Virus record (IMG/VR): IMGVR_UViG_3300047994_000586 | Span: 1 to 30,669 of that record | Source: a virus | Direction: 5' to 3' (one strand) | DNA: 30,669 nt | Shown: one piece after another, positions 98 through 30,669 of the stretch | Numbering within the stretch: the first letter of the stretch is position 1 | Layout: every line of letters begins with the position of its first letter | Position numbers and translations under genes: made by a program | Notes under the pieces: model-generated | Database searches by the model: none | Told to the model about the DNA's origin: nothing | Seen by the model: the letters and a program-made list of their open reading frames with translations, nothing else

Positions 98-1189
98 ATG
101 ATTAAATCAGAAACATTAACCGATAAGGCCTCCCGTTTAACTGTTTCTCAAATTATTCAACAAAGCTACTACCCATCGTTAAATGGCCTCCGCGGCTTGT
201 CCATTTTAATGGTGATTGGGGCTCATTTGCAATTGTCCTCTTCTTTCTGGTACCCGGTGCTATTTAACGGTACACTCGGCGTAAATATATTTTTTGTGCT
301 GAGTGGTTTTTTGATCACCGTTATCTGTTTAAAAGAAAAGCATCAAACAGGGCAGCTTTCGCTAAAGAATTTTTATTTAAGGCGGGCATTAAGAATATTG
401 CCTGTTGCTTATTTATATCTGCTGGTATTATTGATCCTGGATCATTTTTTCCTGCTGCATATCCCTTACTTTCAATTATTGGGTGCGGCTTTTTTCGTGA
501 TGGATTTTAGTTACTTCAACAGCCATTCCTTCAATTTTATGGTTGCACACTATTGGTCATTATCGGTTGAAGAACAGTTTTACCTGATATTGCCCTTTAT
601 TCTGAAAAGAAGTTACAAGGTATTTTTCTGGTGCATCGTTTTTTTAGTGGCGGCTTTACCATTGCTGAGTTCGGCCCAGGCTTTTGTTCCTTTTTTAAAT
701 ACCGGGGGCATGTACTACCTGACTCATTTTTGTATCAAGTTTCAGTCCATTGCGGTTGGTTGCCTGCTGGCGTCACTCGCTTTTAACAAAGCGTTTGATC
801 ATTACCGGATCCTATCTTATAAAATTGCCGGTAACCTTATCGCTATAGCCTTAATCCTTTACTTGCACTATGATGCTTTTTTTTCTCCCGGATCAAGCAT
901 CATCAATTTATTGATCGCTATTTTAATAGCCTATATTATACTGAGCAATCTCGTCCCTGCTAACGATTTTATTTATCGTTTTTTAAACAATAAGGTAATT
1001 TCATGGATCGGAATAATTTCCTACAGTATCTATATCTGGCAACAGCTTTTTACCCTGGGAGATGCCCGGCTACCCCGATTTTTGACCGCTTTTCCCAACA
1101 ATCTGTTGTTTATTGCGATAGTGTCCTGTGGGTCGTATTTTATTTTTGAAAAATACTTCCTAAAGTTTAAGAAGCGTTTCAGCAGGTAG
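98..1189 (+). CDS. OafA-type membrane acyltransferase (acyltransferase 3 family), copy 1
   Basis: Inner-membrane protein of 363 residues predicted to transfer an acyl (often acetyl) group to a surface polysaccharide such as O-antigen. The family signature is clear: an N-terminal LNGLRGLSI stretch with Arg32 and His43 (the conserved R-N10-H pair), then GVNIFFVLSGFLIT at about 80-93, a basic FYLRRALRI loop, and the HYWSLSVEEQFYLILP motif near 150-165. About ten hydrophobic segments follow, with no C-terminal SGNH domain. The ATG start leaves a short polar leader. It runs against the phage strand and converges on the lysis cassette with an 11-base gap. It is a paralogue of the gene at 4343 (same leader layout and SLSVEEQFYL block). 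Family confident; substrate unknown; a role as lysogenic-conversion cargo is inferred from position. Confidence 0.88.
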   Translation: MIKSETLTDKASRLTVSQIIQQSYYPSLNGLRGLSILMVIGAHLQLSSSFWYPVLFNGTLGVNIFFVLSGFLITVICLKEKHQTGQLSLKNFYLRRALRILPVAYLYLLVLLILDHFFLLHIPYFQLLGAAFFVMDFSYFNSHSFNFMVAHYWSLSVEEQFYLILPFILKRSYKVFFWCIVFLVAALPLLSSAQAFVPFLNTGGMYYLTHFCIKFQSIAVGCLLASLAFNKAFDHYRILSYKIAGNLIAIALILYLHYDAFFSPGSSIINLLIAILIAYIILSNLVPANDFIYRFLNNKVISWIGIISYSIYIWQQLFTLGDARLPRFLTAFPNNLLFIAIVSCGSYFIFEKYFLKFKKRFSR

Positions 1190-3087: not shown

Positions 3088-4296
3088 ATGCAAGATCCCG
3101 GGTATTTAGTAAAAGATATAAATTCAAAAGTCAGGCTTCATTTGCCAAATCTGGATCCCCTCAGGTTTTTTGCCGCCGCCATTGTTTCGTTTTACCACAC
3201 GGACATGATGCTCGTATCCAATCATTTAAAAAAGGATTATTATTATTTTTTTCCTTTTCAGCATGGCGATATTGCGGTTATCTTTTTCTTTGTGCTGAGT
3301 GGATTTTTAATAACCTTCCTGCTGCTCAATGAAAAAGATCAAACCGGAAAGATTTCGGTAAAAAAGTTTTATTTGAAGCGGATCTTCAGGATCTGGCCAT
3401 TATACTTTTTAATGATCGGGCTCTCAATCGGCTATTTTAACACCAGCGATTTCTTTCAGCACCAGGCCATTCCCAACTATACTAAGCTCTATGAACATAT
3501 TGGATTGTACGCGCTACTGTTTCTTTTGATCGCGCCAAATATGGTTACACTGGGTGTACCTTCTATTGGGTATGCTAATCCCACATGGTCCATCGGCGTG
3601 GAAGAACAGTTCTACCTGATCTGGCCCTGGATCATAAGGGGTAAACATGCACTACGGAATATTTGTATCATTATAATTTGTGTTTTCCTGCTCACTAATG
3701 GGCTTTCAGGGCGGATATTAGGGGCGTTAACCGCGCATCACGTGCTGCAAACCGGTAGTTTACCTGCAAGCATATTGTTTTACGTTGATCAGTTTTTTAC
3801 CTCCGGATATTCGTTCCGGATCGATGCTATGGCAATTGGAGCGATAGGCTCCTATGTGCTGGTACGCTCACCAGGCTTATTGACTATTATTTATGGAAAA
3901 GCATTTCAGTTTTTTTTATACGTGATCCTGTTTGTACTACTGTTGTTCCCTCATTTCGTAGTTTACCAGTTTTACGCGTTGGTTTTTATATTAATCATCT
4001 TAAACCTATGTGGGAACAGGATGACTATTGTAACGATAAAAAGTAAGGTTCTAAATTATTTAGGTAAAATATCATACGGTATTTATATGTTTCACCTTAT
4101 CGCTATGGTACCTTCCATGCTATTTGTAACTGCCGTTTTAAAGCTGCCGATTAACTTTTATACGGAAATTTTAACCTGCCTGATTTCGTTAGGTATCACG
4201 ATATTAATTGCTTCATTCAGCTTCTATAGTTTTGAACGTTTCTTTTTTATATTAAGGGATCGATTGATAAAAGATTTAAAAACGCCTAAGTTTTAA
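3088..4296 (+). CDS. OafA-type membrane acyltransferase, copy 2
   Basis: 402-residue polytopic acyltransferase 3 family protein, predicted to acylate a surface glycan from the cytoplasmic membrane. Diagnostic blocks: NLDPLRFFAAAIVSFYHTD with Arg26 and His37, DIAVIFFFVLSGFLITFLLL at about 67-86, FYLKRIFRIWPLYFL at about 100, and TWSIGVEEQFYLIWPW near 165-182. It is less similar to copies 1 and 3 than they are to each other (LDPLR rather than L.GLRG; WSIGVEEQ rather than WSLSVEEQ), so it is probably an independent acquisition. It is the first of two tandem plus-strand genes in a minus-strand phage cluster; the next possible start follows within 50 bases. Family certain, substrate unknown. Confidence 0.9.
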   Translation: MQDPGYLVKDINSKVRLHLPNLDPLRFFAAAIVSFYHTDMMLVSNHLKKDYYYFFPFQHGDIAVIFFFVLSGFLITFLLLNEKDQTGKISVKKFYLKRIFRIWPLYFLMIGLSIGYFNTSDFFQHQAIPNYTKLYEHIGLYALLFLLIAPNMVTLGVPSIGYANPTWSIGVEEQFYLIWPWIIRGKHALRNICIIIICVFLLTNGLSGRILGALTAHHVLQTGSLPASILFYVDQFFTSGYSFRIDAMAIGAIGSYVLVRSPGLLTIIYGKAFQFFLYVILFVLLLFPHFVVYQFYALVFILIILNLCGNRMTIVTIKSKVLNYLGKISYGIYMFHLIAMVPSMLFVTAVLKLPINFYTEILTCLISLGITILIASFSFYSFERFFFILRDRLIKDLKTPKF

Positions 4297-4342
4297 GTTC
4301 AATATCTTGGTCTGTTGTGTTCTAAATAATTTTATTCTTGAA

Positions 4343-5464
4343 ATGAATAATATGACTGGTAATAAAGCGAGTGCTTTTAAACAAAAACTATTTGCCGAGA
4401 TAACTGAAATACCGGATATACTAAAACCGTCGTATTTGCCTGGACTTGACGGTTTAAGAGGGCTTTCGATATCAATCGTGATTATAGGCCATTTTGCATT
4501 ATATCGTGGGCTATTGGACTATTTGAATGGTGAAATTGGGGTACAGGTTTTTTTTGTTATAAGCGGTTTTTTGATTACGACCTTGTTATTGAAGGAAAAG
4601 GTTAAACATAAAAACGTCTCACTTCGCAAATTCTATATTCGTCGATTTTTAAGAATTGTTCCTGTTTCGTATTTATATCTGATAGTCGTAATTCTTTTAA
4701 ATAGGCGACTGCATTTGGGTGTAACGTTGAAAAGTTTTACAACAGCATTTTTGTACCTTAAAAACATTCCTTTCAAAAACGCGACCGATTGGACAACGGG
4801 GCATTATTGGTCTTTATCAGTTGAAGAGCAGTTTTATCTTTTTTTTCCATTTTTTATTATATTTAAATGTAATAAGTATTTATGGTTAAGTATCTTAATA
4901 ATAATTTTTTTGCCATTTTTAAACATTCTTGGTTTTAATAATGTAGGTGTATTCTACAAAAATCATGTAATACATTTTTTTACATTTTCCTTAATAATTC
5001 TTCTTGGTAAAGGCACAGCCAGTATTCTTGTAGGGTCTACATTTTCTATTTTACTCTTTAAAAAAATTATTCGTATCGAAAATTTACCAGATAGCTATTT
5101 TTTGAGCTTTTTACTGTTAGTATTTGCTTTTGCTTTATTAACAAGGGTATCGGTTTTCTATTATGAATTTATATCTGTTGCAATTTTCCCATTTTTAATA
5201 GGTTACATAATTGTTGTTAACCTAAGACAGCGAAATTTTTTAAGTAATGTTCTCGAAAACGCTACGATAAAAAAAATTGGCGTTTTGTCGTATAGTTTGT
5301 ATGTCTGGCAACAAATTTTTACAAATAATGATCGTTGGAATTTGTTTAAATATTCCGATACGATAATCGTTAGACTAATTATGCTCGTTTTAGTAGCTAA
5401 TATTTCATACCATTTTTTCGAGAAGATATTTTTGCGTTATAAGGCAAAATTTAAAATGAGCTAG
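4343..5464 (+). CDS. OafA-type membrane acyltransferase, copy 3
   Basis: 373 residues from the ATG at 4343 (a second ATG lies at 4352). An upstream TTG at 4307 would extend the frame, but it falls inside a promoter-like TATCTTG and adds an unconserved leader. Family blocks: GLDGLRGLSISIVIIGHF with the conserved Arg and His 11 residues apart, GVQVFFVISGFLITTLLL, FYIRRFLRIVPVSYLYL, and HYWSLSVEEQFYLFFPFF. Strongly AT-rich with long T and A runs compared with the phage structural genes, a sign of recent transfer. It is the closest relative of copy 1 here. The gene converges on the tail fibre gene across a 75-base gap, so surface-modification and receptor-binding genes sit side by side. Confidence 0.88.
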   Translation: MNNMTGNKASAFKQKLFAEITEIPDILKPSYLPGLDGLRGLSISIVIIGHFALYRGLLDYLNGEIGVQVFFVISGFLITTLLLKEKVKHKNVSLRKFYIRRFLRIVPVSYLYLIVVILLNRRLHLGVTLKSFTTAFLYLKNIPFKNATDWTTGHYWSLSVEEQFYLFFPFFIIFKCNKYLWLSILIIIFLPFLNILGFNNVGVFYKNHVIHFFTFSLIILLGKGTASILVGSTFSILLFKKIIRIENLPDSYFLSFLLLVFAFALLTRVSVFYYEFISVAIFPFLIGYIIVVNLRQRNFLSNVLENATIKKIGVLSYSLYVWQQIFTNNDRWNLFKYSDTIIVRLIMLVLVANISYHFFEKIFLRYKAKFKMS

Positions 5465-10289: not shown

Positions 10290-11498
10290 TTATGCGCTCA
10301 GGTAAAACAGTTCGTTAGCGAATTTGAAGTTTACGGCTGCTTTCATCCGCGCTTTCATGCGCACCACGTTGTCGTTGGTGTAAGGCTTCATGTAAACGGT
10401 AGACAGTTCGGATGCATCGCCTAACAGATCGACGCCTAAAAACAGGTTGGATGAGCGGGCACCTAATATGGTGTTGGCCTGCCAGTGGTTCATGATCTGT
10501 AATGGAATACCAAGGTAATCCATCTTTTTCAGATCGGTAAATGCGTTGATTACGTTGAGCGCCTTATTCGCCTGTGCCTGTGCAAAAGCATATGCCACAT
10601 GCAACGGTACCTGCAGGTTAAAATCTTCCTGGATTCGGTCTGCCGGGTCAAGCTGTGCATAAACGCTGCCCAGTACCTGCAAAACGTTGCTTACGTTAAT
10701 GTAGCTTATGGTAGCTGCTGTTGCCGTACCGCTAAAGGTTGCAGGCTTACGACTGTTGATCTCGTTATAATTCCGGATCAGCTTAAAGGAGGTAGCACCT
10801 GCGACCTGGATAAAGTAGGATTGCCCCTGAACCGCGATGCCTGTTCCGCCGTTAGTAGTGTCTTTTATACTGCCGGTGATGTTGGTTAGGGTCACTACGT
10901 CGCCGTCGGCAAGGGTAGAGGTGTCCGATACGGTCACCAGGCCGGTGGCATCAATTGCCGTGGCAGCCATTGAGGTTGCCGGTTTACCTAAACCAACTTT
11001 ATATACACCCGAAGCTGCTGCAATGGTTGGCAGTAAGCCTGTAAAAGGCGCTGTAAAAGTAGCTTCTTTGGTAGAACCTTTGCCCAGCCAGTAAAGGCGT
11101 TCGTTGGCAATTTGGATCTTGCTCAGGTAACGTTGTACCATAAAGTCCGAGAGGTCTACAATGCCCTCGTAATCCATAAAGGCACCCGGTTTAAGGCTTT
11201 GCGCCTCCCACGACTGGATGAGGTGATCCCATTGTTCCTGTTTCATAAATTCGTATACTACCGGATCGAGGTAGCTTTCGTTTTGCAGGGCGGTTGTTCC
11301 CTGATCGGTAAACAGGCCGGAAGGGTCCTGCAGCACCACGTCATCGTCCACATCAAGGATCACCTTGCGCGATTTTACGTCGTTGATAACCGTTAATAAT
11401 CCACGCTTTACGGAATCAGCTTCCAGCAGCGTGCTTGCCATAAACCCGGCCAGCGCTTCGCCGGCATAGGTATTGTTTGTAAATGTAAATTGGGCCAT
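10290..11498 (-). CDS. major capsid protein, HK97-like, with inserted beta domain
   Basis: 402 residues, calls as the main shell protein from its position directly downstream of the head protease, its size and its layout. Residues 1-160 hold an N-terminal helix region, a probable E-loop (VVLQDPSGLFTDQGTTALQN) and a spine helix (FMVQRYLSKIQIANERLYWL). Residues 270-402 hold a second helical part and a beta P-loop-like C-terminus. Between them, about 184-268 form an extra beta-rich insert (GLVTVSDTSTLADGDVVTLT, then GQSYFIQVAGATSFKL). This insert recalls the small beta domains, such as FCCH-like 'DGD.V.L....T' modules, decorating many phage proteins. The insert would project on the capsid surface. 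There is no long N-terminal delta domain, matching a separate or protease-fused scaffold. Confidence 0.78.
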   Translation of the reverse strand: MAQFTFTNNTYAGEALAGFMASTLLEADSVKRGLLTVINDVKSRKVILDVDDDVVLQDPSGLFTDQGTTALQNESYLDPVVYEFMKQEQWDHLIQSWEAQSLKPGAFMDYEGIVDLSDFMVQRYLSKIQIANERLYWLGKGSTKEATFTAPFTGLLPTIAAASGVYKVGLGKPATSMAATAIDATGLVTVSDTSTLADGDVVTLTNITGSIKDTTNGGTGIAVQGQSYFIQVAGATSFKLIRNYNEINSRKPATFSGTATAATISYINVSNVLQVLGSVYAQLDPADRIQEDFNLQVPLHVAYAFAQAQANKALNVINAFTDLKKMDYLGIPLQIMNHWQANTILGARSSNLFLGVDLLGDASELSTVYMKPYTNDNVVRMKARMKAAVNFKFANELFYLSA

Positions 11499-14114: not shown

Positions 14115-15209
14115 CTATTTGATAGGTCTTAATATCCTGTTCCAGCGTACTTTGTGGAACACATTCTGTGATGAATCCAGACTGAGCCAGGTGATCATTG
14201 CCTTGCCGATGATATGATCCTCGGGAACATAGCCCCAGAAGCGGGAGTCGAGCGAATTGTGGCGGTTATCGCCCATCATCCAGTAGTAATTCATTTTAAA
14301 GGTATAGCTATCCGCTTTTTTTCCGTTGATCAAAATGTCTTTGCCCTGTACGTCAACCTTGTTATGCTCGTATACTTCAATAGCGCGTCGGTATAATGCA
14401 AGGGTCGAATCGTTCAGTGTTACGGACGTTCCCTTTTTTGGCAGCACCAGCGGACCGAAATTATCGAGGTTCCATTTAAAGCGGGCATCGTGCGGGAAGA
14501 TCTGCGGATCTACCTGCCCGGCTGACTGGAATATCGGTGTAACACTTTTTATGTTCGAGTAGGCTTTCAGCGCAGCTACACCGTCGGTAGGGATCAGCAT
14601 TACAAATGTTTTATCGTCGTTTTGCTGCATCAGGGTAATCTTCAGGTCTTCCAGTACCTGCGGGTTGATGTTTCGCCCGTCGGTCACTACGGTATAATCC
14701 GTCTGGGCATGCGGCGCATTGGGTGCGGGCTTTCCGTTGATGTATACCTGGGTATTAACAATGGAGAGCCGATCGCCGGGTTCAGCCTGGCAGCGTTTGA
14801 TCAGGGTGGTGCGCTGGTCTACCGGGATGCCGGCATCTGCTTCTTCGGGTTTGTTAAATACCACGATATCACCTTTTTTAGGATCGCTAAATCCAGGTAA
14901 GCGAAAAAACGGTAACTGGATGGAGCTGATGTACGTTTTGATGCCGTACATCACCGGCTCGGTAAACGGGATAGATAAAGGCGTTATCGGCATCCTTGCG
15001 CCGTAGCTGAACTTACTCACAAATAGGTAGTCGCCGGTTAGCTCGGTGCCCTCCATTGAACCCGATGGAATGGCATAGGCTGAAAATAATAAGCCCCGGA
15101 TAACAGTTGCCGCAATAATGGCGAACACCAAAGCATCAACCCACTCGCGGGTTTTCGATTTTTTGGGTTGGTTAGCGGCTTTTTTGCTGTTAAATATTTT
15201 CCAGTTCAT
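14115..15209 (-). CDS. lepB: signal peptidase I
   Basis: 364-residue type I signal peptidase that removes signal peptides from exported proteins at the outer face of the inner membrane. One N-terminal span (about 23-45) leads to the nucleophile Ser51 in IPSGSMEGTEL. The general base Lys138 lies in TLIKRCQAEPGD, and the third signature GDNRHNSLDSRFWGYVP is near 318-334. Domain layout and length, including the long insert at about 165-290, match Bacteroidetes LepB. All catalytic residues are present, so it should be active. It follows a TPR lipoprotein gene by 67 bases and probably shares its promoter at 15925. A complete lepB between tape measure and head protease genes is odd: host DNA caught between phage blocks, or cargo. 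Confidence 0.93.
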   Translation of the reverse strand: MNWKIFNSKKAANQPKKSKTREWVDALVFAIIAATVIRGLLFSAYAIPSGSMEGTELTGDYLFVSKFSYGARMPITPLSIPFTEPVMYGIKTYISSIQLPFFRLPGFSDPKKGDIVVFNKPEEADAGIPVDQRTTLIKRCQAEPGDRLSIVNTQVYINGKPAPNAPHAQTDYTVVTDGRNINPQVLEDLKITLMQQNDDKTFVMLIPTDGVAALKAYSNIKSVTPIFQSAGQVDPQIFPHDARFKWNLDNFGPLVLPKKGTSVTLNDSTLALYRRAIEVYEHNKVDVQGKDILINGKKADSYTFKMNYYWMMGDNRHNSLDSRFWGYVPEDHIIGKAMITWLSLDSSQNVFHKVRWNRILRPIK

Positions 15210-15276: not shown

Positions 15277-15906
15277 TCAGTTGGTTGTCTTTTCCTTGCC
15301 GCCATTTAAAATGTCTTCGCGGGTGGTGTTCATCATACGTTCGTAGGCCTGTTTATAAACCGGGTTCGATTCGGCCGCATACAGGTGCTCTAAAATGGCG
15401 CGGGCCATTTTGGGCTGCCGCAGCAGGATGAGCGACATGGCTTTGTTACTCTCCAATGCGTTATGTTCCTTGCTTTTGGCAGACATGGTATCGAGCACAT
15501 GGGTGTAGGTTTGGAGCGCGCTCTTGTAAAAGTTGCGTGCCGTTACGGTGTCGCCCATTTTTTCGGAAGTGATACCCGCGCTGATCCTGATATCGGCGTT
15601 GGCGGGCCTTAGCTCCATCATTTGTTTTGCAGTGAGCAGCGCATCTCCGTATTGTTTGAGCCTGTTCTGCAACAGGAACTTGTTGTAATATGCTTCGAAA
15701 TAGTTGTTATCCAGCTTAATGGCCTGGTTCAATATGTTGATGGCGTTCTCCAACGCGGCCGTGTCGGGTTTGTTTCCGGAGAGCGACAACGAGCCAAGGG
15801 CAGCATCGTTTAATTTCCGGGCCTCGGGGTTTATTCCCTGCGGGAGATGCGAGCAGCCGGCTAAAAAGGCACAAAACAAAAGGGCGATGAGGGCGGTACG
15901 TTTCAT
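15277..15906 (-). CDS. TPR-containing lipoprotein
   Basis: 209 residues. Signal peptide with lipobox LAGC (acylated Cys18), so it should be a membrane-anchored lipoprotein. Helical TPR-like repeats cover about 50-190: INILNQAIKLDNNYFEAYYN, YGDALLTAKQMMELRPANAD, then MGDTVTARNFYKSALQTY, and a last pair ending AYERMM. Such repeats bind protein partners; the partner is unknown. It is the first gene of a two-gene unit with lepB, with a close-to-consensus Bacteroidetes promoter upstream. Nothing in it looks phage-derived. Confidence 0.82.
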   Translation of the reverse strand: MKRTALIALLFCAFLAGCSHLPQGINPEARKLNDAALGSLSLSGNKPDTAALENAINILNQAIKLDNNYFEAYYNKFLLQNRLKQYGDALLTAKQMMELRPANADIRISAGITSEKMGDTVTARNFYKSALQTYTHVLDTMSAKSKEHNALESNKAMSLILLRQPKMARAILEHLYAAESNPVYKQAYERMMNTTREDILNGGKEKTTN

Positions 15907-16264: not shown

Positions 16265-18898
16265 CTATAAATTAACCCGGTTAATGGTTTGGGCCAGGAT
16301 GTTCTGCTGGTTGTTCACGTCTTTCACGTCGACATACACCGGGGGGAAATTATTGATCATCTGGTAGGCAATGGAGTTGGCCAGGTTCTTCTGGTCGGCA
16401 ACCGGAGCGTTGTAAAAGCGGTTGGCATCGCCGCCATCGGTAAAGATACCGCCTACGGCATAGCCGCGCCCGGGATTGGTGATTGAAAAATCGCGACCGC
16501 CAAAACCCACGTTAATGGCGCTTACCAGGTTACGTGCCCAAGGCACCTGCATCGCTTCGGACACCACGATGCCCTCGCCCGAGCGGAGGAAGGCGTTGGT
16601 ATTATCGGTACGACTGTAGCCCGGTAAAACACCACCGCGCCCGTCGGAGGCATAGTGTAGGCCGCCTTTTGCGTAGGCAGGTGGCTTTTGTGAAGCGATC
16701 TTGGCTACCTGTATGGCTGTTTCGGCAATGGTGACGCCAATTTCCAGCGGTGCCAACACACCGCTCTGGGACGAAACTTTGGTGATCGCCAATGCGCCGT
16801 TGATCAATGCCTGGGCAATGGATATTTCCTGTTCCTCCTTAAATGCCTTCACCTTTATGGCACCTTCTTCGCGGCGGTATTTTTGCTCTATCGCCAGCCT
16901 TTGTGCCGAAGTGAGCCCTTTATTGCTCAGCTCCGCGGTTTTATCCTTTTCAAGTCCGGCAATTTTGGCTTCGCTCTCCTGTTTTATGCTGGACGAAAGC
17001 AAGGCGAGCGACTGATCAAAAATCTGCTTCGCGTCCTTTTTGGCTTCTTCCTTAAATTTCGTTCGCTTCTCAGCTGCATCTTTTTGCTTCTTTTCCTCGT
17101 AGTCCTTGTTCAGCTGCAGCAGATCGGCGTTCAGCTTTTGGGTGATTGATACTATTGCAGCTGCATTGTTATTTGCCTGGCTAATTTCAAATGCGGCCTT
17201 ATCGGTAGTTAATTTTTTCTCTGCTTCCAGCTTTTTCTCCGGATCGTTTTCATTATCAACCGCTTTGGTGTCGTTATTGATCACCTCGTCCTGCTTTATT
17301 TTATTGATGGCTTCGGCGGTTTGCTGCTCCATAATGATCCGTTTTTGGTTATTTACGGTTTGCAGCTGCATTTGCAGGTTCAGCTGCTGTTGCAGTTCAG
17401 TGGTATCGGCTTTAGGGTCGGTCTTTTTGGCGGCCAGGATATCTTCACTCAGCTTTTTAACTTTGTCCACACTGTCTTTTAGCGCCTTATCCAGCTCTGC
17501 CTGCTGGTTGTTCAGTTGAAGCTGCAGTTCGGCAATTTGTTTTTCTTTGCCCTCCTTCATGGCCTTTACCTGCAATTCGGCCAGCTCTTTTTGTGCTTCG
17601 GCAACCTGCCCGGCGGAGTCGAGCTGCTCGTCATTTAACTTTTTGGTGCTTTCCACCAGATCGGTATGCGCCGCTTTTTGCCTGCGGAAACTCTTAATTA
17701 TTACTTCGCCATTTTTATTGATGGCTTTCGCATTTGCTTTAGCTTGTTTCTCGCCCTCGTCAAAAGCAGTGATCATTTCGCCGGTAGTTTGCACCACTAT
17801 TTCCTTAGCGTGGTCGTATGCTTTCGCCAGTTTGCCGGTAGCGTCGGTAACACCCGTTACGGCCTGCAATGCACCGTTGGCTACTTTTTTAAAGTCGAGG
17901 TGGATAATGCCATCCAGTATCACGCTAAAGGCTTTAAAGCGGTTAACGATATTTTCCATAATCATTTTGCCGAGTGTCTTCAGGCTTTCTACCGGGTGCG
18001 TAACTGCATCGATGATGGCTGTTTTTAAGGTGTTGACAAAATCCTTTACTTTATTTACCACCACACCGATGGCCGAGATGGCACCCGAGAGGATTGCGCT
18101 ACCTTCGGATGATTTAAGAAAGTTGTCGAACAAGTCCTGCAAGATTTCGAGCAGAAAGCCGAGCCCATCGGATTTTATGGCCGTCCCGATACCTTTGATG
18201 CCGCCCTGCACTATATCCAGCCCTTTTTTCATGCTGTTGAAACCATCGGCGGCGTCCTTCAGGCTCGGCCCGAAGATGCCGGAGACATTCTCGATCGACT
18301 TGAACGACTTTTTCATTTCGTCCATCGTTTTCTTGTGACCGTCGAAAGCTTTTTTATTGGTCGCGATGGTTCCCTGCTGCGACTTCAGCGCTCCGCTGGC
18401 TCCGCTTACCGCGCCTTTAAGCTGTTTGGCTTTGGTGGCGCTTTTAGCCAGGCTGCCACCCAGTGCATCGGCTGCCTTTTTACTGTCGCCGGTTGATTTT
18501 TTGTTTTTGGCGGTCGCCTTGTCCAGGTTGCTCACCTGTTTACTCAGTTCCTTGGTTTTTGCAGTGGCATCACTGGTGGCTTTTGCCGCTTTTTGCTGTT
18601 GTGTTGCCAGTGCGGCAAGTGCCGTGCCGGCTGTTTTGGCAGAACTGCCCAGTGTTTTCAGTGCCGAACTGCCGGAACTGAGCTGGGTGCTGAGCGCCTT
18701 TATTTTTTTCTGTAGTTCTTCTACCTTATCTGCCGTGTCGGAAAAATCGGCTGAGTTTTGCTTGCCCGAGTTTTTTAGCTGTTCCTGTTTAGCCAAAAGT
18801 TCGTCGATGGATTTATTGAGGCTGTTGATGTTTTCGGTGATGTTGCCCGCCTCCAGCTCAACGGCGATGGTTATTTTTTTGCTGATATCGTCTGCCAT
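16265..18898 (-). CDS. phage tail tape measure protein
   Basis: 877 residues. Sets tail length and is ejected with the DNA. Long Lys/Ala/Gln-rich coiled coils cover about 10-200 and 400-690 (KDAKQIFDQSLALLSSSIKQ is typical). A hydrophobic/amphipathic centre at about 200-350 (AILSGAISAIGVVVNKVKDF) is followed by a Gly-rich C-terminus with the tape-measure end motif (YSRTDNTNAFLRSGEGIVVSEA). By the usual 1.5 Å per residue the tail would be about 130 nm, so a siphovirus or myovirus. No sheath gene is visible, which favours a siphovirus. Unlike lambda, no chaperone pair lies immediately upstream. Confidence 0.9.
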   Translation of the reverse strand: MADDISKKITIAVELEAGNITENINSLNKSIDELLAKQEQLKNSGKQNSADFSDTADKVEELQKKIKALSTQLSSGSSALKTLGSSAKTAGTALAALATQQQKAAKATSDATAKTKELSKQVSNLDKATAKNKKSTGDSKKAADALGGSLAKSATKAKQLKGAVSGASGALKSQQGTIATNKKAFDGHKKTMDEMKKSFKSIENVSGIFGPSLKDAADGFNSMKKGLDIVQGGIKGIGTAIKSDGLGFLLEILQDLFDNFLKSSEGSAILSGAISAIGVVVNKVKDFVNTLKTAIIDAVTHPVESLKTLGKMIMENIVNRFKAFSVILDGIIHLDFKKVANGALQAVTGVTDATGKLAKAYDHAKEIVVQTTGEMITAFDEGEKQAKANAKAINKNGEVIIKSFRRQKAAHTDLVESTKKLNDEQLDSAGQVAEAQKELAELQVKAMKEGKEKQIAELQLQLNNQQAELDKALKDSVDKVKKLSEDILAAKKTDPKADTTELQQQLNLQMQLQTVNNQKRIIMEQQTAEAINKIKQDEVINNDTKAVDNENDPEKKLEAEKKLTTDKAAFEISQANNNAAAIVSITQKLNADLLQLNKDYEEKKQKDAAEKRTKFKEEAKKDAKQIFDQSLALLSSSIKQESEAKIAGLEKDKTAELSNKGLTSAQRLAIEQKYRREEGAIKVKAFKEEQEISIAQALINGALAITKVSSQSGVLAPLEIGVTIAETAIQVAKIASQKPPAYAKGGLHYASDGRGGVLPGYSRTDNTNAFLRSGEGIVVSEAMQVPWARNLVSAINVGFGGRDFSITNPGRGYAVGGIFTDGGDANRFYNAPVADQKNLANSIAYQMINNFPPVYVDVKDVNNQQNILAQTINRVNL

Positions 18899-21058: not shown

Positions 21059-21175
21059 ATTTTTAATTCAGAAATTCCGGCGGTAAAAAAACGAACTCCG
21101 GAGTTGGAGGTGAAAGGATTAAATTGATTTAAAATATTTATCTTGAACAGGTTGTGTAAACGAAACCTAAGCTTA

Positions 21176-22075
21176 ATGAAAACGCATTTTTTAATATCGG
21201 TACTTTGTTTTTTAATGTTAGCCGCATGTGAAAAATCCAACAAAGCGCCTGATGCCATAACCAGTATAGAGGTTGCCACACGGGGCTGTGGAGAACTTTG
21301 CCAGTATAATGCCATCCTTATAAAAAAGAATCTCAGCTACCAATATTTTGCAGGCTGGACACCAGCGTTTAGCAATCAATTCAAACCGGGATACTATGTA
21401 AGCCATGTGAGCCAGCCCTTTTGGGATTCCATTACCGGAGTTCTTCGGCAAATTGATTTAAGTCATTTAAAACTTAAAAATGACAATGTAAACGGTGACG
21501 ATCATTTAGAGATCATCATTCACTATGATAGCAAGGTAAAACATCTAACAGGTTCTTTTTCCACGCTGCCATCCAAACTAATCGACATCTTTGGTTTGAT
21601 AGATGCGAGCTACCGCACTTTAAATTTGAAACCGGCTGGCCAACGTTTAAAGTTTGAAATTCCAACTCAGCAATTTGAACGTTTTAACGTAAGTGAATCT
21701 ATCTCAATATCAAAAGAACGAGGTGTATTTTTGGGTGAAAATCAAATACATGCACCTTTAATCGCGGGTAGAATTGTATTGCATAGTTTTTACGAAAAAA
21801 ACTATTATTTAAATGATTCCGGCAAAGTTCAGATCGGCCCACCTGGCATGCATGACGTGTATCTCCTCAAACCTGCATCTGTACCGGATAGTATCGCCAA
21901 AGCAAACTTTAAAAAATGGATGCTGAGAGATGATAAAGAAGATACCTTCATTCGATACAACTATTATGCGCCTAACGTGTTTTTTTGGTTATCAGGTGGG
22001 ACATATGACGCAATTGCCTTTAAAAACTACGGAAAGATTTATAAATCTATCCGTAAGCATTTAGCACACCAGTAA
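21176..22075 (+). CDS. lipoprotein with DUF6438-like domain, antisense cargo
   Basis: 299 residues from ATG 21176. The frame is open from a TTG at 21143, but that TTG lies in a promoter-like TATCTTG and the ATG gives a perfect lipoprotein signal (MKTHFLISVLCFLMLAACEK, acylated Cys18). The segment ITSIEVATRGCGELCQYNAI with Cys38 and Cys42 matches the 'i...tg.CG.CP.y' start of DUF6438 domains as I recall them. The remainder is mixed alpha/beta and unknown. It runs opposite to the phage genes and ends 13 bases from the convergent stop of the 705-residue tail gene. Surface exposure and a role such as superinfection exclusion are inferred only from the context. Confidence 0.75.
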   Translation: MKTHFLISVLCFLMLAACEKSNKAPDAITSIEVATRGCGELCQYNAILIKKNLSYQYFAGWTPAFSNQFKPGYYVSHVSQPFWDSITGVLRQIDLSHLKLKNDNVNGDDHLEIIIHYDSKVKHLTGSFSTLPSKLIDIFGLIDASYRTLNLKPAGQRLKFEIPTQQFERFNVSESISISKERGVFLGENQIHAPLIAGRIVLHSFYEKNYYLNDSGKVQIGPPGMHDVYLLKPASVPDSIAKANFKKWMLRDDKEDTFIRYNYYAPNVFFWLSGGTYDAIAFKNYGKIYKSIRKHLAHQ

Positions 22076-25347: not shown

Positions 25348-25605
25348 TTATTGCTTCTCCAGCAAGGCGCTGTATCGTTTCTGGTATTCGGCTTCCGTTT
25401 TGTTGAGGAGCAGCTTGGTGAGGACGCGCTCGTAGGGGAGGTTCAATACCTGCGCCCATTTGCAAACATCGCCCCCGGCAAGCGAATTTATGGTGTTGAT
25501 GTATTTAAACTTATCGAAGGCTTGTATGCCCGCCCTTTTTTCGAGAACGGAAGCAGGCGATGCCAACAGCTTGTTTTCGGTTTCGATAAGTTGGGATAAC
25601 AGGTA
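25348..25605 (-). CDS. C-terminal part of the tail chaperone, reached by a -1 shift
   Basis: 85 codons in the -1 frame relative to the gene at 25488, beginning YLLSQLIETENKLLASPASV and continuing LEKRAGIQAFDKFKYINTIN to the stop at 25348. The frame has no ATG at its beginning (only a TTG at 25566), overlaps the upstream gene by 118 bases, and continues its last helix (KHFF then YLLSQLIETE). It is therefore best read as one 280-residue product formed by frameshift at the T7 run, not as a separate gene. The C-terminal domain is helical and Leu-rich (VLNLPYERVLTKLLL). Confidence 0.6.
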   Translation of the reverse strand, partial: YLLSQLIETENKLLASPASVLEKRAGIQAFDKFKYINTINSLAGGDVCKWAQVLNLPYERVLTKLLLNKTEAEYQKRYSALLEKQ

Positions 25606-26189
25606 AAAAAATGTTTGGCAATGGGCAGCGCCTCACATACCCTTAGTTTTTTTATTTCGCCGGTAAATGCTTCTGCTTCGTATTCGTTGTAGGGTTTGCC
25701 GGTGGCACGGCAATAAAAATAATGTGCCAGCACCTGCGCACAGGCCTGTAACGACGGGTTAAAATGATCCTGCCATTCATCCGGACCGTAAAGGTTTACC
25801 TGTGCGCTGATCTCTTCGGCGATAATATCGCGGGCGGCCATAAAGGCTCCCGCCGGTTCAACCGATAGGTTGTGCATCACAAATACAGTTTTATAGCCGT
25901 CTTCGAGGTGGAAGGTAACCGATTTGGGGATCTCATCGCTGTCGTAAAGCGATTTGATCTCTTCGGCAAGCGTTAACAGGGGCAGGGCAAACTCGTGCAG
26001 GTCATCAATGCGGATGATGTTTTGCAGGCCTGACAGTGGGATCCCCGAAAGGATGCTGATGGCCTGCAGGTCGTTCAAATCCGCTTCCTGTTGCATGCTG
26101 ATGAGTTGTTCGAGCGTAATTTCATCGAGCCGGGTAGGGATGCTTACCCGCAGCTTCCCTGTGGTGGTTTTTAGTGTTTTATGGAGCAT
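25488..26189 (-). CDS. tail assembly chaperone-like protein, zero-frame part
   Basis: 233 codons from ATG 26189. The N-terminus KLRVSIPTRLDEITLEQLIS has the 'v.iP..wdeiTl.q...' form seen at the start of tail assembly chaperones and related Bacteroidetes phage proteins. The fold-like part ends at KHFF (residues 192-195). At codons 193-195 the mRNA reads CAU UUU UUU A, giving a perfect U UUU UUU slippery heptamer. Beyond it the zero frame gives an unnatural Cys/Ser/Pro-rich tail (TCYPNLSKPKTSCWHRLLPF) while the -1 frame continues a sensible helix. Lambda makes gpG and gpGT by such a shift; a single T loss or a read error gives the same picture. It sits directly after the large terminase, not before the tape measure. 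Confidence 0.65.
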   Translation of the reverse strand: MLHKTLKTTTGKLRVSIPTRLDEITLEQLISMQQEADLNDLQAISILSGIPLSGLQNIIRIDDLHEFALPLLTLAEEIKSLYDSDEIPKSVTFHLEDGYKTVFVMHNLSVEPAGAFMAARDIIAEEISAQVNLYGPDEWQDHFNPSLQACAQVLAHYFYCRATGKPYNEYEAEAFTGEIKKLRVCEALPIAKHFFTCYPNLSKPKTSCWHRLLPFSKKGRAYKPSISLNTSTP

Positions 26190-26239: not shown

Positions 26240-27490
26240 TTAGCGCAGCAAATGCATTGCTGCAAAATCAAAAGCCGGGCCGTTACTTTTGGGCAGCCAG
26301 CTTTTTGGCCCGCTCACATTACGCGTGTTCAGCTTATTGAGGGCCACGTAACGCAGGGGATCAATCAGGTGGTTCCAGGTATCTACGGGCTCGTTCAATA
26401 CCTTGCCGTTGCGGTCGGTTTTCCATTTATAACGGCCCAGCTCATTGCGCAGGTTAACGCTTTGCCGGGTAACGTTAATGCGGTAGCGTTTTAAAATATC
26501 GATGGATATATTGATACTGTCGGGGCCCTTTTTTGCACCCACAACGCGCCATCCCAGGCGGCGCAGTTCCTCGATGGATTTAGGTTCGGCGCTATCGGCA
26601 ATGATCTCCGTATTTTTGCCGATGCCCGCCCGGTTGAGTTTGGCAGCAATTTCCGGGTTGGTGAGGCCGGTTTGATACAGCACTTCATCTACCCATAACT
26701 CGCCGTTCTGGCGGTAAACCAGCAGGCAGCCCGTTTCATCGTTGGTGAAACCAAAATCGAGCCCCGCAGCCAGCAGCGTGGCACCTTCGGGAACGGCGTT
26801 GCAAAGGTGCCAGTTGGTGAGTACCAGTCCGGTGATCTTACCGGTTAAGCCGCGGGCATACACCCGCCATAACTCATTGTCTACCGCTTTTAACGATTCA
26901 ATTTTATCGCGCGTTTGTGCCGACAGGAACGGGTTGTGCCGGTGATCGCTGATGATGAGCTGTACGCCCGGCTGACCGATCAGCCTATCGTGTACCCAAA
27001 AGGCGCTGTTCGGGTTATAGTCGATGTAGATCTTCTTTTTGGTGCGGAGGGCCAGCTCGTTGTATACATCATAGTCTATCCCGTTTGCTTCGTTCACAAA
27101 AAGGTAATCGCGTTTGCCCGATTTTGCATCCTGGGCATTGTCATAGCTTTTAAACTCCATCAGGCTGCCGTTGGTAAATTCAAAAATACGGTCCGTTTTG
27201 TTGAAGCTTTTCACGGCGGCCTGCAATACCGCCGAGCCATAATAAATGCTTTGCGCGTCGCGCAGGGCACCTGCCTTCAGGTTCGGGATGTCCTGCCCTA
27301 CAACGGTGATCACCTGTTTGGCATTTTCGCAGGCCAGGCAAAACAATACCTGTTCAATGGCATACGTTTTTCCGGAGCTGGTGCCGCCCTGGTTAATGAT
27401 GATGTGACCCGCGGCGTTATAATTTTCGCTGAATAACACAGATGCCTGCTGATCTGCCGGGATGGTATTTTTTTTGGAGGATGCTGGCAT
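26240..27490 (-). CDS. terminase large subunit
   Basis: 416 residues from ATG 27490; the upstream TTG at 27535 adds a leader that overlaps the opposite promoter. DNA-packaging motor: Walker A GGTSSGKT at about 35-42, Walker B with catalytic Glu in DYLFVNEANG, then an RNase H-like nuclease domain with AAGLDFGFTND, IIADSAEP and a late Asp in WNHLIDPLRYVAL. These are the PBSX/Terminase_3-like features. The pattern suggests headful or cos-type packaging, not decidable here. It follows the small subunit gene with an antisense lipoprotein gene inserted between them, and precedes the chaperone-like gene by 50 bases. Confidence 0.93.
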   Translation of the reverse strand: MPASSKKNTIPADQQASVLFSENYNAAGHIIINQGGTSSGKTYAIEQVLFCLACENAKQVITVVGQDIPNLKAGALRDAQSIYYGSAVLQAAVKSFNKTDRIFEFTNGSLMEFKSYDNAQDAKSGKRDYLFVNEANGIDYDVYNELALRTKKKIYIDYNPNSAFWVHDRLIGQPGVQLIISDHRHNPFLSAQTRDKIESLKAVDNELWRVYARGLTGKITGLVLTNWHLCNAVPEGATLLAAGLDFGFTNDETGCLLVYRQNGELWVDEVLYQTGLTNPEIAAKLNRAGIGKNTEIIADSAEPKSIEELRRLGWRVVGAKKGPDSINISIDILKRYRINVTRQSVNLRNELGRYKWKTDRNGKVLNEPVDTWNHLIDPLRYVALNKLNTRNVSGPKSWLPKSNGPAFDFAAMHLLR

Positions 27491-27528
27491 TTTAAGCTTT
27501 ATGGTTGTAAATAATTTAAGTTCAGTTA

Positions 27529-27561
27529 TTTGCAAATGTGTACCGATAAGCAGTACATTTA
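27529..27561 (+). promoter_or_regulatory. sigma-A promoter of the lipocalin-like lipoprotein
   Basis: TTTG (27529-27532), 21 bases, then TACATTTA (27554-27561), close to TTTG-N19/21-TAnnTTTG, 20 bases before the ATG at 27582. A private promoter on the strand opposite to the phage genes is the classic sign of a moron. Confidence 0.5.
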
Positions 27562-27581: not shown

Positions 27582-28031
27582 ATGAAAAAGGTGGTTTTTA
27601 TACTTTTAGGTTTCTCCGCGTTATTTATTTTATCCTGCAAAAAAGGAAGTGCTGTATCCGCAACACCCGCTGTAAGCATCATCGGTAAGTGGTACGTAAC
27701 CGATCATATCGAAACGCATTACTTTCAAAATACCCTTGTAGATTCAAATAATTACAAGCAGTTCACCACCGACGATTATATCCAGTATTTCACCGACGGA
27801 TCGGGTATCGGTTCGGTAAACGCTACGCCTGCTCCGCGACTGAGTATCTTTAAATACACTATCGACGGCACTGCGTTAATGGTCTATAATTCAGTAGGCA
27901 ATCCGGGTGTGCCACAAACCGTTACCAAGCTAACGGCTACGGAACTGGCCATTCATTTTGTACAATTGGTGAGCGACCCGTATACCGGCAACCAGGATGT
28001 GGAAACCAATGATTTTACCTTTAAAAAGTAG
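27582..28031 (+). CDS. lipocalin-like lipoprotein, moron between terminase genes
   Basis: 149 residues. Signal MKKVVFILLGFSALFILSCK with acylated Cys19. The mature part starts SIIGKWYVTDHIET, has DDYIQYFTDGSGIG and LSIFKYTIDGTALMVYN, then ends in VTKLTATELAIHFV and short strands: the G.W start and repeating strand pattern of lipocalin-like Bacteroidetes lipoproteins. It is inserted between small and large terminase genes, antisense to both, with its own promoter, and its stop is 4 bases from the small terminase stop. It should be expressed from the prophage and exposed on a membrane; exclusion of other phages is possible but unproved. Confidence 0.8.
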   Translation: MKKVVFILLGFSALFILSCKKGSAVSATPAVSIIGKWYVTDHIETHYFQNTLVDSNNYKQFTTDDYIQYFTDGSGIGSVNATPAPRLSIFKYTIDGTALMVYNSVGNPGVPQTVTKLTATELAIHFVQLVSDPYTGNQDVETNDFTFKK

Positions 28032-28035
28032 GCGG

Positions 28036-28473
28036 CTATAACTGTACGCCCTGCTCGGTTCTGGCAGGTTTGGGGCCGCTTTCAATGATCTCTATTTTAA
28101 TGTTCCCTGGCAGTGATACCGCTGTTTTTTCTTCTGTTTTTTCTTTCCAGCCCAATGCGCGCAGCGCGAAGATAGCACCGGATGGCGACTGCTGGTGCAG
28201 CTTCCGCTCGTAGGCCGCTTCAATGCGCAGGCGACTTCGCTTAACGATGGCGGCAAATTCGCCGTTTTGTTCATAATCATCAAATTCCTGTTTGCTGCTG
28301 AACCCCAGGAACAGCGCAAGCCCGGCCATGGTAGCAGGCTCGGGATCGCGGTCGCATATCTTTTGCTCTTTGCCGTTTATTGTTTCGAGGTGATATTCGC
28401 CTGCTATAAAAACAAAATAGGCGTCGGCTTTTTCAGCCAGTTTTGTGGCGTTTTTAAAGTGTGTTGGTAACAT
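28036..28473 (-). CDS. terminase small subunit (gp3-like)
   Basis: 145 residues, recognises phage DNA and hands it to the large subunit. The middle (PATMAGLALFLGFSSKQEFD) is a helix-turn-helix-like DNA-binding segment. The following block (AIVKRSRLRIEAAYERKLHQ then SGAIFALRALGWKEK) is characteristic of the GP3_package-like small subunits. The C-terminal KIEIIESGPKP tail is probably the large-subunit contact. First gene of the minus-strand phage run, with a good promoter and an inverted repeat in its leader. Confidence 0.85.
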   Translation of the reverse strand: MLPTHFKNATKLAEKADAYFVFIAGEYHLETINGKEQKICDRDPEPATMAGLALFLGFSSKQEFDDYEQNGEFAAIVKRSRLRIEAAYERKLHQQSPSGAIFALRALGWKEKTEEKTAVSLPGNIKIEIIESGPKPARTEQGVQL

Positions 28474-28549: not shown

Positions 28550-28655
28550 TATTTTTAGCAATTTCTGATAGTTGTAACAAGTTTGTGAGGTTCTTCAGGG
28601 AAAATTCAGATTTATTGCGGATAATTGATAATTGGAAAAAATGCTGCCTCCATTT

Positions 28656-29903
28656 ATGAACCGGATTTTCTTGTTTTACTGCTTGGTTCTGGGTGTTTTA
28701 TGCTGCCCCGGTTCGCTGCATGCGCAGGATATCAGGTACATACCACTCACTAAGCATCCTAAGGGGGATAGCATTATCGCCAAAAAAAAGGATACGGTGC
28801 AGCAACTGGATGTGTACGATGTTATTTCCGGCTGGTTCGGCTCGAAGAGCATTTCGACCAAGCCCGATACGGTGGGTAAAAAACCGGTGTTTTCGGTAGT
28901 GCCTGCTTTGGGCTATACGCTGCAATCAAAACTTGCCCTCACACTGGCTGGGAACATCGAGTTCCGGGTGTCGCCGCAAACCAAAATATCCACCATTATC
29001 ATCAATACGGCCTTTACGCAAACCAAGCAGATCATCATTCCCATACAATCCAGCATCTGGACAAATAATAACGACTATAATTTTGTGGGCGATATCCGGT
29101 ACCTCAAATACCCGGAAAGCACCTGGGGACTGGGCAGTAATTCGAAGTTTAAGGATGAGGATCCGATGGATTACTCCTTTTTCCGGTTTTACGAAGTGAT
29201 CTTACGGCGCGTATGCCCGGATGTATTTTTAGGAGCCGGATTTATTTACGACGATCATTTTAAGATCAGGGAAAAAGGTACGCTCGACGGCGCACCATCG
29301 GGCTATGCGGCCTATGGTGCCGAATCGCACACCTTATCATCAGGTATTACGCTGAACGGCTTATTCGATAACCGCGATAATTCCATCAATGCTTCCAGGG
29401 GATGGTACGCTGCAGTAACCTATCGCGATAACAAAAGCTTTTTGGGCAGTACGCGCAACTGGCAGTCGCTGGTGTTTGATGTGCGTAAATATTTCAGGTT
29501 TCCGGAAGGGTCCAATAATGTGCTGGCGCTCTGGTCGTACGATTGGCTGGTGATCGGCGGCACGCCGCCCTACCTCGATCTTCCGTCCAATACGTGGGAT
29601 ACCTTTAGCGGTACGGGCAGGGGCTACATACAGGGCCGTTTCCGCGGGGCGCAAATGGTGTATGCCGAATCGGAGTATCGCTTCAAAATTACCCGGAACG
29701 GTTTGCTGGGCGGGGTATTCTTTGTAAATTCAGAATCGTTCTCGGCTGCACCGGGTACCGGCCTGCAAAGTATACAGCCTGCGTTCGGTCCGGGCATCAG
29801 GTTAAAGCTCAATAAGATCTCTAAAACCAACATTGCGATAGACTACGGTATCGGGCGCGAAGGGTCGCGCGGGGTATTTATTAACGTTGGCGAAATATTT
29901 TAA
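28656..29903 (+). CDS. BamA/TamA-like outer membrane barrel protein
   Basis: 415 residues from ATG 28656; the frame is open from a TTG at 28632 with another ATG at 28641, but the third start gives a clean signal peptide (MNRIFLFYCLVLGVLCCPGS, cleavage after LHAQ). After a short periplasmic stretch the protein is a barrel of the Omp85 surface-antigen type, with alternating strands: FSVVPALGYTLQSKLALTLA, GLFDNRDNSINASRGWYAAV (the typical 'D.RD....P..G.....'), GRGYIQGRFRGAQMVYAESE (the 'RGY..g.f.g......E.R' signature) and a terminal strand ending GEIF. No POTRA repeats are visible, so it is a short Omp85-like protein, possibly a nuclease-independent porin or assembly factor. Ordinary host gene, divergent from the terminase operon. 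Confidence 0.82.
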   Translation: MNRIFLFYCLVLGVLCCPGSLHAQDIRYIPLTKHPKGDSIIAKKKDTVQQLDVYDVISGWFGSKSISTKPDTVGKKPVFSVVPALGYTLQSKLALTLAGNIEFRVSPQTKISTIIINTAFTQTKQIIIPIQSSIWTNNNDYNFVGDIRYLKYPESTWGLGSNSKFKDEDPMDYSFFRFYEVILRRVCPDVFLGAGFIYDDHFKIREKGTLDGAPSGYAAYGAESHTLSSGITLNGLFDNRDNSINASRGWYAAVTYRDNKSFLGSTRNWQSLVFDVRKYFRFPEGSNNVLALWSYDWLVIGGTPPYLDLPSNTWDTFSGTGRGYIQGRFRGAQMVYAESEYRFKITRNGLLGGVFFVNSESFSAAPGTGLQSIQPAFGPGIRLKLNKISKTNIAIDYGIGREGSRGVFINVGEIF

Positions 29904-30081: not shown

Positions 30082-30669
30082 ATGGGTAACAAAAGGTTTA
30101 CTTACCTTATTTATACTTTCGCAATATTGCTGCTGGCAGCGGTTTCATCGTGCCAGAAGGATGATAGTGCGGCCCAGCCCGATCCGGTTAAGACCAGTGT
30201 AATTGCCGATAGTTCGGTGATGTCGTCTCCCGGAAATTTCCTTGCCGTGAGCGGTACGCTAAGCGTAAAATACAACGATTCTACTTATACTTTTGATGCT
30301 GCGCATGATTCGATTGCCTTTATCAATGTGCACGGCGATGCCAGCGCGCGCTTTTTTGGCATCACGGCGATCAATAAAGAACATAACATGAGCTTCGGGA
30401 TCAGCTCTTCCGGGCATCCTTACAGCAAGATCAATGCAGGCGTTGCAGGCAGCCAGTTTTTGTTAACTACCGATGCGCAGAAACCCGCCATGCAATTATC
30501 CCTCAGCAAATATTCTGCACCTACCGACCTGGGCAGTATCACCATAGATACCTATAACGAAGGTACCCAGCTGGCAAAAGGAACTTTTGTTACTTTTTTG
30601 GCCAAGGATGATAAGGCCAATTCACCGTATTACCGCGTAGAAGGTACGTTCGACCTGAAGCTGAAATAG
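30082..30669 (+). CDS. DUF6252-like lipoprotein, complete at the window edge
   Basis: 195 residues, stop TAG at 30667-30669, so the gene is complete though it ends with the window. The signal MGNKRFTYLIYTFAILLLAA is followed by VSSCQ, with acylated Cys24. The mature part is a beta sandwich-like domain (LAVSGTLSVKYNDSTYTFDA, then MSFGISSSGHPYSKINAG, LAKGTFVTFLAK and YYRVEGTFDLKLK). The closing G.F pattern resembles DUF6252-type Bacteroidetes lipoproteins; family given from memory. The 178 bases between it and the barrel gene are AT-rich and hold nothing I recognise. Host gene, function unknown. Confidence 0.7.
   Translation: MGNKRFTYLIYTFAILLLAAVSSCQKDDSAAQPDPVKTSVIADSSVMSSPGNFLAVSGTLSVKYNDSTYTFDAAHDSIAFINVHGDASARFFGITAINKEHNMSFGISSSGHPYSKINAGVAGSQFLLTTDAQKPAMQLSLSKYSAPTDLGSITIDTYNEGTQLAKGTFVTFLAKDDKANSPYYRVEGTFDLKLK

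What the first reader, a model, noticed from the sequence alone, without database searches (positions are those of the whole stretch)
25348..26189. Tail chaperone-like gene split by a -1 shift at a perfect U UUU UUU heptamer
At codons 193-195 the zero frame reads CAU UUU UUU ACC. The zero frame beyond it loses protein character, while the -1 frame continues a plausible helix (KHFF then YLLSQLIETE) for 85 codons. This is the gpG/gpGT arrangement of many phages, here placed after the large terminase and with a plain T7 slippery site. The equally simple alternative is loss of one T from a T8 run, by mutation or read error.
Basis: partly seen in the sequence, partly recalled or inferred. Interest (0 to 1): 0.6.

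Follow-up and report, generated by a model that had tools for sequence, protein, structure and literature searches.

The report
Conserved frameshift in Bacteroidota phage gene
A phage-type gene that looks broken by a run of seven T's is really read in two ways, giving a short and a long protein. The arrangement is kept in every close relative examined (some 70 Mucilaginibacter species-level genomes), and in at least one cultured phage and several other phage lineages in a T9 form, although no database describes it.

Summary
On the minus strand, ORF 26189..25488 (233 aa) meets T_TTT_TTT at 25611..25605, and the -1 frame runs on for 85 codons to a stop at 25348. This is not a mutation or read error. 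All 53 viral-contig homologues found through the neighbouring terminase, and all 73 Mucilaginibacter/Pedobacter loci found through the C-domain, keep a T7-T11 run with the C-domain in the -1 frame; none is fused in one frame. The slip codons show no synonymous variation, and the -1 frame is the better conserved half.

(2) A GGAGG lies exactly 19 nt upstream in all 61 T7-T8 genome loci but in 1 of 12 T9 loci. (3) Eight highly divergent phage lineages, including cultured Nonlabens phage P12024S, carry an in-phase T9 at the same place. No conserved downstream hairpin was found.

Tail-chaperone function is likely by analogy but unproven: no sequence or fold match, and the gene follows TerL rather than abutting the tape-measure gene. 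The gene lies in a single-copy element near recurring neighbour genes across Mucilaginibacter, possibly a domesticated prophage.

The parts
25488..26189 (-). Zero-frame ORF (short product, 233 aa): 195-aa N-domain plus 38-aa zero-frame tail
   Evidence: homologous N-domain (43-63% identity) in 53 viral contigs and 73 genome loci
25605..25611 (-). Slip heptamer T_TTT_TTT (codons 193-195 CAT TTT TTT)
   Evidence: T>=7 in all 126 homologous loci; no synonymous variation at codons 193-195
25348..25605 (-). -1 frame extension encoding the 85-aa C-domain and its stop (long product 280 aa)
   Evidence: C-domain 46-82% identical and always in the -1 frame
25488..25604 (-). Dual-coded stretch: 38-codon zero-frame tail overlapping the C-domain, with its stop codon
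   Evidence: open >=35 codons in 94% of homologues versus 6% expected from synonymous recoding; 3 stops seen versus about 103 expected
25631..25635 (-). TGAGG, aligned with the GGAGG (Shine-Dalgarno-like) found 19 nt upstream of the slip in relatives; candidate stimulator, degenerate in this window
   Evidence: GGAGG at exactly 19 nt in 62/73 genome loci; codon 186 is GAG in 38 of 46 while GAA is commoner elsewhere in the gene
26240..27535 (-). Large terminase subunit, directly upstream
   Evidence: Pfam Terminase_3/3C, PHROG terminase large subunit
28036..28473 (-). Small terminase subunit
   Evidence: phrog_606 E=2.5e-17
16265..18898 (-). Tape-measure protein, downstream in the same module (four structural genes between)
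   Evidence: several PHROG tape-measure families, best E=1.2e-8

Best explanation
The gene makes two proteins by programmed -1 ribosomal frameshifting. Most ribosomes read the 233-aa short form. A fraction slip back one base when tRNA-Phe occupies UUU UUU in the P and A sites of U_UUU_UUU, and finish a 280-aa form in which the helical C-domain replaces the 38-aa zero-frame tail. In this clade the slip is probably helped by a GGAGG-like element 19 nt upstream and not by a downstream hairpin. The products most likely act as a pair of tail-assembly chaperones, in the manner of lambda gpG and gpGT. Shown: gene structure, conservation, codon-level selection on both overlapping frames. Inferred: that the shift happens on the ribosome, its efficiency, the role of GGAGG, and the chaperone function.
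For: -1 frame and T>=7 in 53/53 and 73/73 separately gathered loci, many of them isolate genomes; one set was found through TerL, the other through the C-domain, so frame arrangement was not a selection criterion. Zero synonymous change at codons 193-195 among 50 distinct genes (3146 same-residue codon pairs) although TTT is only 73%, CAT 59% and TAT 51% elsewhere. C-domain 46-82% identical versus 43-63% for the N-domain. No fused single-frame version among the 126. T7 is shorter than the T-run (n>8) cited for transcriptional realignment (PMC3711429). Upstream ACG GAG codons and GGAGG strongly constrained. Gene lies in the TerL-to-tape-measure block, also in phage TCUEAP1, and follows TerL in cultured phage P12024S.
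Against: No protein or reporter data. U_UUU_UUU is a weaker slip site than A_AAA_AAG in E. coli (PMC5009743). GGAGG at 19 nt lies just outside the 6-17 nt window searched for known stimulators (PMC4066793), and in this window it is reduced to TGAGG. No conserved downstream structure. No homology of N- or C-domain to known tail chaperones; not adjacent to the tape-measure gene.
Confidence: 0.8

Rival explanations
1. Programmed transcriptional realignment: RNA polymerase stutters on the T run and inserts one U in a fraction of transcripts, giving the same 280-aa product. Likeliest for the T9 relatives.
For: Eight divergent phage lineages carry exactly T9 at this place; Tn with n>8 is cited as a transcriptional realignment motif (PMC3711429); insertions rise exponentially with the length of A/T runs (PMC5574713).
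Against: The window and most Mucilaginibacter loci have only T7-T8 (61 of 73). In T7 genes the phase is always the one needed for tandem tRNA slippage, though this may be a single inherited event. Conserved GGAGG accompanies the short runs.
Confidence: 0.13
2. The frame break is an inactivating single-base deletion (T8 to T7) or a sequencing error.
For: Loss of one T would give the same local picture; some genes of this element are broken in some species (TerL in 6 of 71 loci).
Against: 126 of 126 homologous loci from many assemblies keep the break at the same codon with no fused form, and an identical second contig has T7.
Confidence: 0.01
3. Phase variation: the T run changes length in DNA and switches the C-domain on and off.
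For: Homopolymeric runs can mediate phase variation.
Against: Runs of T7, T8, T9 and T11 all leave the C-domain in the -1 frame, so the length differences arise by substitution, not indel; no in-frame state was seen.
Confidence: 0.02
4. The frameshift is real but the pair is not a tail chaperone; for example a neck or head-assembly factor of Bacteroidota phages.
For: Directly follows TerL rather than preceding the tape-measure gene; no homology to known chaperones.
Against: Lies at the start of the tail block that ends in the tape-measure gene, in the window and in TCUEAP1; the two-product -1 architecture is typical of tail chaperones.
Confidence: 0.25

Closest known systems
Lambda gpG/gpGT and other tail-assembly-chaperone frameshifts (reviewed in PMC5009743)
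   Different: All-U slip; no sequence or fold homology found; directly after TerL and not next to the tape-measure gene; zero-frame tail of about 38 codons (114 nt), where annotated phage frameshifts average 26 nt to the in-frame stop (PMC10885494)
dnaX / IS911-type -1 frameshift signals with an upstream Shine-Dalgarno-like stimulator (PMC4066793)
   Same: Homopolymeric-type heptamer and an SD-like element upstream
   Different: U run instead of A run; spacing 19 nt where 6-17 nt was the range searched; no downstream hairpin conserved
Programmed transcriptional realignment at A/T runs (Thermus dnaX type; PMC3711429)
   Same: T9 form in distant relatives would fit
   Different: Window clade has only T7-T8, with GGAGG
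Elizabethkingia phage TCUEAP1 QGZ15838.1 (L004:2164-2706)
   Same: Same position after TerL; C-domain homologous (33% identity; E=2.7e-12 by profile)
   Different: 180 aa in one frame, no T run: an unshifted relative

Membership tests
Tail assembly chaperone with -1 frameshift (lambda gpG/gpGT kind) | First ORF and a -1 frame extension joined at an X_XXY_YYZ heptamer | tested here: met
   T_TTT_TTT with the C-domain in -1 in 126/126 loci
Tail assembly chaperone with -1 frameshift (lambda gpG/gpGT kind) | Gene sits between major tail protein and tape-measure gene, next to the latter | tested here: not met
   Gene directly follows TerL; four structural genes and about 6.6 kb separate it from the tape-measure gene
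Tail assembly chaperone with -1 frameshift (lambda gpG/gpGT kind) | Sequence or fold homology to known tail chaperones | tested here: not met
   No Pfam or informative PHROG match, no PDB sequence match, no PDB fold match. BFVD fold matches are unnamed phage proteins. Known chaperones are very divergent, so this is weak evidence.
Tail assembly chaperone with -1 frameshift (lambda gpG/gpGT kind) | Both products made in a fixed ratio, bind the tape measure, absent from virions | not testable with these tools
   Needs protein work
Programmed -1 ribosomal frameshift signal | Slip site under selection at synonymous positions | tested here: met
   Ratio of observed to expected synonymous difference 0.0 at codons 193-195 versus 0.89 in codons 1-180
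Programmed -1 ribosomal frameshift signal | Stimulator: upstream SD-like sequence or downstream structure | tested here: inconclusive
   GGAGG conserved at 19 nt, outside the usual window; no downstream structure (mean z -0.25)
Programmed transcriptional realignment | T run longer than 8 | tested here: not met
   T7 in the window; T9 only in 12 of 73 genome loci and in distant lineages
Gene transfer agent or domesticated prophage (context of the gene) | Single copy at a conserved chromosomal place, inherited vertically | tested here: inconclusive
   One copy per genome in nearly all carriers; recurring neighbour genes beside the element in most loci, though gene order differs between lineages; distances track RpoB, Mantel r 0.70-0.73 for this gene, p=0.001
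Gene transfer agent or domesticated prophage (context of the gene) | Packages random host DNA; no self-mobilisation genes | not testable with these tools
   No integrase recognised among window or G002 genes by inspection, but no systematic family scan was done; packaging needs particles

The most novel reading that the evidence does not exclude
The frameshift belongs to a phylum-wide but undescribed family of poly-U-shifted tail genes of Bacteroidota phages. In Mucilaginibacter it serves a vertically inherited, domesticated phage particle (possibly a gene transfer agent), and there the decoding signal has changed from a T9 run to T7 plus a GGAGG helper, perhaps a change from transcriptional to ribosomal slippage, while a second, dual-coded C-terminus is kept for the unshifted product.
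Probability: 0.3. Interest if true: 0.8.

Novelty: new variant of a known kind. Interest (0 to 1): 0.55.

Why it matters
It shows that a well-known trick of phage tail assembly exists across Bacteroidota phages in a form that annotation has missed: P12024S genes 38 and 39 are listed as two unrelated hypothetical proteins. It offers a natural series (T7+GGAGG, T8+GGAGG, T9 without GGAGG, T11) for asking how ribosomal and transcriptional slippage replace one another. It also gives the zero-frame product a second selected tail, so both products may have dedicated C-termini. And it draws attention to a conserved phage-like element in Mucilaginibacter whose function is unknown.

Tried and rejected
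A long-range stem pairing GGAGGCGCTGCC (upstream) with GGCATCGCCTCC-like sequence about 45 nt downstream looked good by eye. Duplex energy was lower than in synonymous recodings (mean z -1.36), but own arms paired hardly better than arms taken from other sequences (-20.9 versus -20.3 kcal/mol; own better in 22 and 29 of 46), so covariation does not support it and I dropped it. RNAalifold gave no consensus structure in any window. A downstream hairpin was not supported (z -0.25). Protein search of genome contigs with the single 280-aa query found nothing; the C-domain alignment did. Flavobacterium phage 6H gave a weak fold match, but its -1 frame has a stop just after its T_TTT_TTC, so it is not counted. 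PDB sequence and fold searches gave nothing. The GGAGG/T-run association (Fisher p=3e-12) is largely one or two events on the RpoB tree, so the p-value is not taken at face value.

Full report
What is there. On the minus strand of the window, an ORF from 26189 to 25488 (233 aa) follows the large terminase gene (26240-27535). Its codons 193-196 read CAT TTT TTT ACC. From the last T of the run (25605) the -1 frame is open for 85 codons to a stop at 25350-25348, so a -1 slip gives a 195+85 = 280 aa protein. The window is a virus record; a second, identical IMG/VR contig also has T7.

Homologues settle the question of error versus programme. Searching viral contigs with the neighbouring terminase gave 80 loci. 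In 53 of them both halves of the gene are found, and in all 53 the C-domain lies in the -1 frame with at least T7 at the junction. A separate scan of bacterial and archaeal genomes with an alignment of the C-domain alone gave 73 loci, nearly all Mucilaginibacter species and one labelled Pedobacter. In all 73 the same holds: T7 in 52, T8 in 9, T9 in 12. The two sets overlap in part. No locus has the two halves in one frame. Neither search used the frame arrangement as a criterion.

Codon-level selection. Among 50 distinct genes, codons 193-195 show no synonymous difference in 3146 same-residue pairs, although TTT, CAT and TAT make up only 73, 59 and 51% of their codon pairs elsewhere. Normalised synonymous diversity is 0.89 over codons 1-180, 0.67 at 181-192, 0.0 at the slip, about 0.6 at 201-210, and returns to about 0.87 in the C-only part. 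The C-domain is 46-82% identical to the window, more conserved than the N-domain.

The zero frame after the slip is also kept. It stays open for 35 or more codons in 94% of loci; synonymous recoding of the C-domain would leave it open that long in 6%. Zero-frame stops in codons 197-230 number 3 where about 103 are expected. Controls show no such depletion: the third frame of the same stretch has 108 versus 127, the same frame beyond the stop 137 versus 180, and the N-region 664 versus 756. The terminating stop at codon +38 is enriched (40 versus 26 expected). In annotated actinobacteriophage frameshifts the mean distance from slip to zero-frame stop is 26 nt (PMC10885494); here it is 114 nt.

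Signals around the slip. GGAGG lies exactly 19 nt upstream of the run in 62 of 73 genome loci: in all 61 with T7-T8 and in 1 of 12 with T9. The viral set agrees: 36 of 37 versus 1 of 9. The one T7 exception is this window, with TGAGG. The constraint includes synonymous positions (ACG GAG). Most of the T9 genomes fall in one or two branches of an RpoB tree, so the association is suggestive only. The spacing is just outside the 6-17 nt searched for known SD-like stimulators (PMC4066793). No conserved downstream structure was found; a long-range stem seen by eye failed the covariation test.

Wider family. Among terminase relatives with no or only marginal N-domain similarity, L053/L054, L059/L065, L060, L066, L067/L068, L080, L082, and the cultured Nonlabens phage P12024S (L157) all have, within 1.5 kb after TerL, a single run of exactly T9 after 159-174 open codons, with a -1 tail of 82-99 residues that often carries a (Y/W)GW motif (first seen). 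T>=7 runs are rare in these loci (31 in 165,576 bases). P12024S was reached through a fold match of the N-domain model (pLDDT 82; BFVD E=1.1e-4); its gene is annotated as unrelated hypothetical proteins 38 and 39. TCUEAP1 has a single-frame relative of the C-domain. T9 is the length at which transcriptional realignment becomes a real alternative (PMC3711429; PMC5574713), so those relatives may use either mechanism.

What it does. The position at the start of the block from TerL to the tape-measure gene (16265-18898, and for TCUEAP1), the two-product -1 architecture and the small helical C-domain (model mean pLDDT 70) make a tail-assembly chaperone pair the best guess. Two defining features of the lambda kind were tested and not met (homology; adjacency to the tape-measure gene), so I do not file it as a member; I claim it works like one.

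Context worth following. The C-domain is found in 101 of 150 genomes of the host genus, one copy in all but one of them. Host-side genes recur beside the element: a lipoprotein-like gene (window 30082-30669) in 50 of 73 loci and a surface-antigen-like gene (28632-29903) in 25. An S24-type repressor-like gene and a 138-aa gene lie upstream of TerS in all six genomes examined at 60 kb, and in 39 of 59 loci with enough flank at least one of them is seen; ubiE and porT-like core genes are shared further out in three. The naming of these neighbours is from inspection of their sequences, not from a family scan, and flank order differs between lineages. Distances of this gene track RpoB (Mantel r 0.73 and 0.70, p=0.001, 30 genomes). 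The major capsid protein is 71-93% identical over its full length in most of the 76 genomes that have it, while TerL is interrupted in 6 of 71 loci. This resembles a domesticated prophage, conceivably a gene transfer agent, but is not shown to be one. I found no paper on it.

Literature limits. Papers were searched only in the open-access set; a description of this family in a subscription journal would have been missed.

Noticed in passing
window 1-30669; L084-L156; L159-L176: The structural gene cluster is single copy in about two thirds of 150 Mucilaginibacter genomes, with recurring neighbour genes and divergence that tracks RpoB: possibly a domesticated prophage or gene transfer agent.
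   Followed up: partly
window 10290-11498 (-): Major capsid protein 85-93% identical across most carrier species, far more conserved than the other cluster genes; missing in many carriers of the frameshift gene and in pieces in a few (G005, G079, G004).
   Followed up: partly
L157:23136-23827 (Nonlabens phage P12024S genes 38 and 39): Unannotated frameshift gene in a cultured lytic phage: T9 at 23578, C-domain in the -1 frame.
   Followed up: yes
L159, L162, L165, L168, L171, L174, upstream of TerS: An S24/LexA-like repressor gene and a 138-aa gene of unknown function recur near TerS in all six genomes examined; possible regulator of the element.
   Followed up: no
window 14115-15209 (-) and 15277-15906 (-): A signal-peptidase-like gene and a TPR-lipoprotein-like gene lie inside the structural cluster and were rarely or never found in relatives' flanks, so probably cargo.
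   Followed up: no
window 98-1189, 3088-4296, 4307-5464, 21143-22075, 27582-28031 (+): Opposite-strand acyltransferase-like and lipoprotein-like genes inserted between structural genes; variable cargo between species.
   Followed up: no
L088, L090, L104, L128, L141, L144: TerL reading frame looks interrupted in these loci, so the element may be decaying in some species.
   Followed up: no
L004:2164-2706 (Elizabethkingia phage TCUEAP1): Relative of the C-domain in a single uninterrupted 180-aa frame: a form without frameshift.
   Followed up: partly
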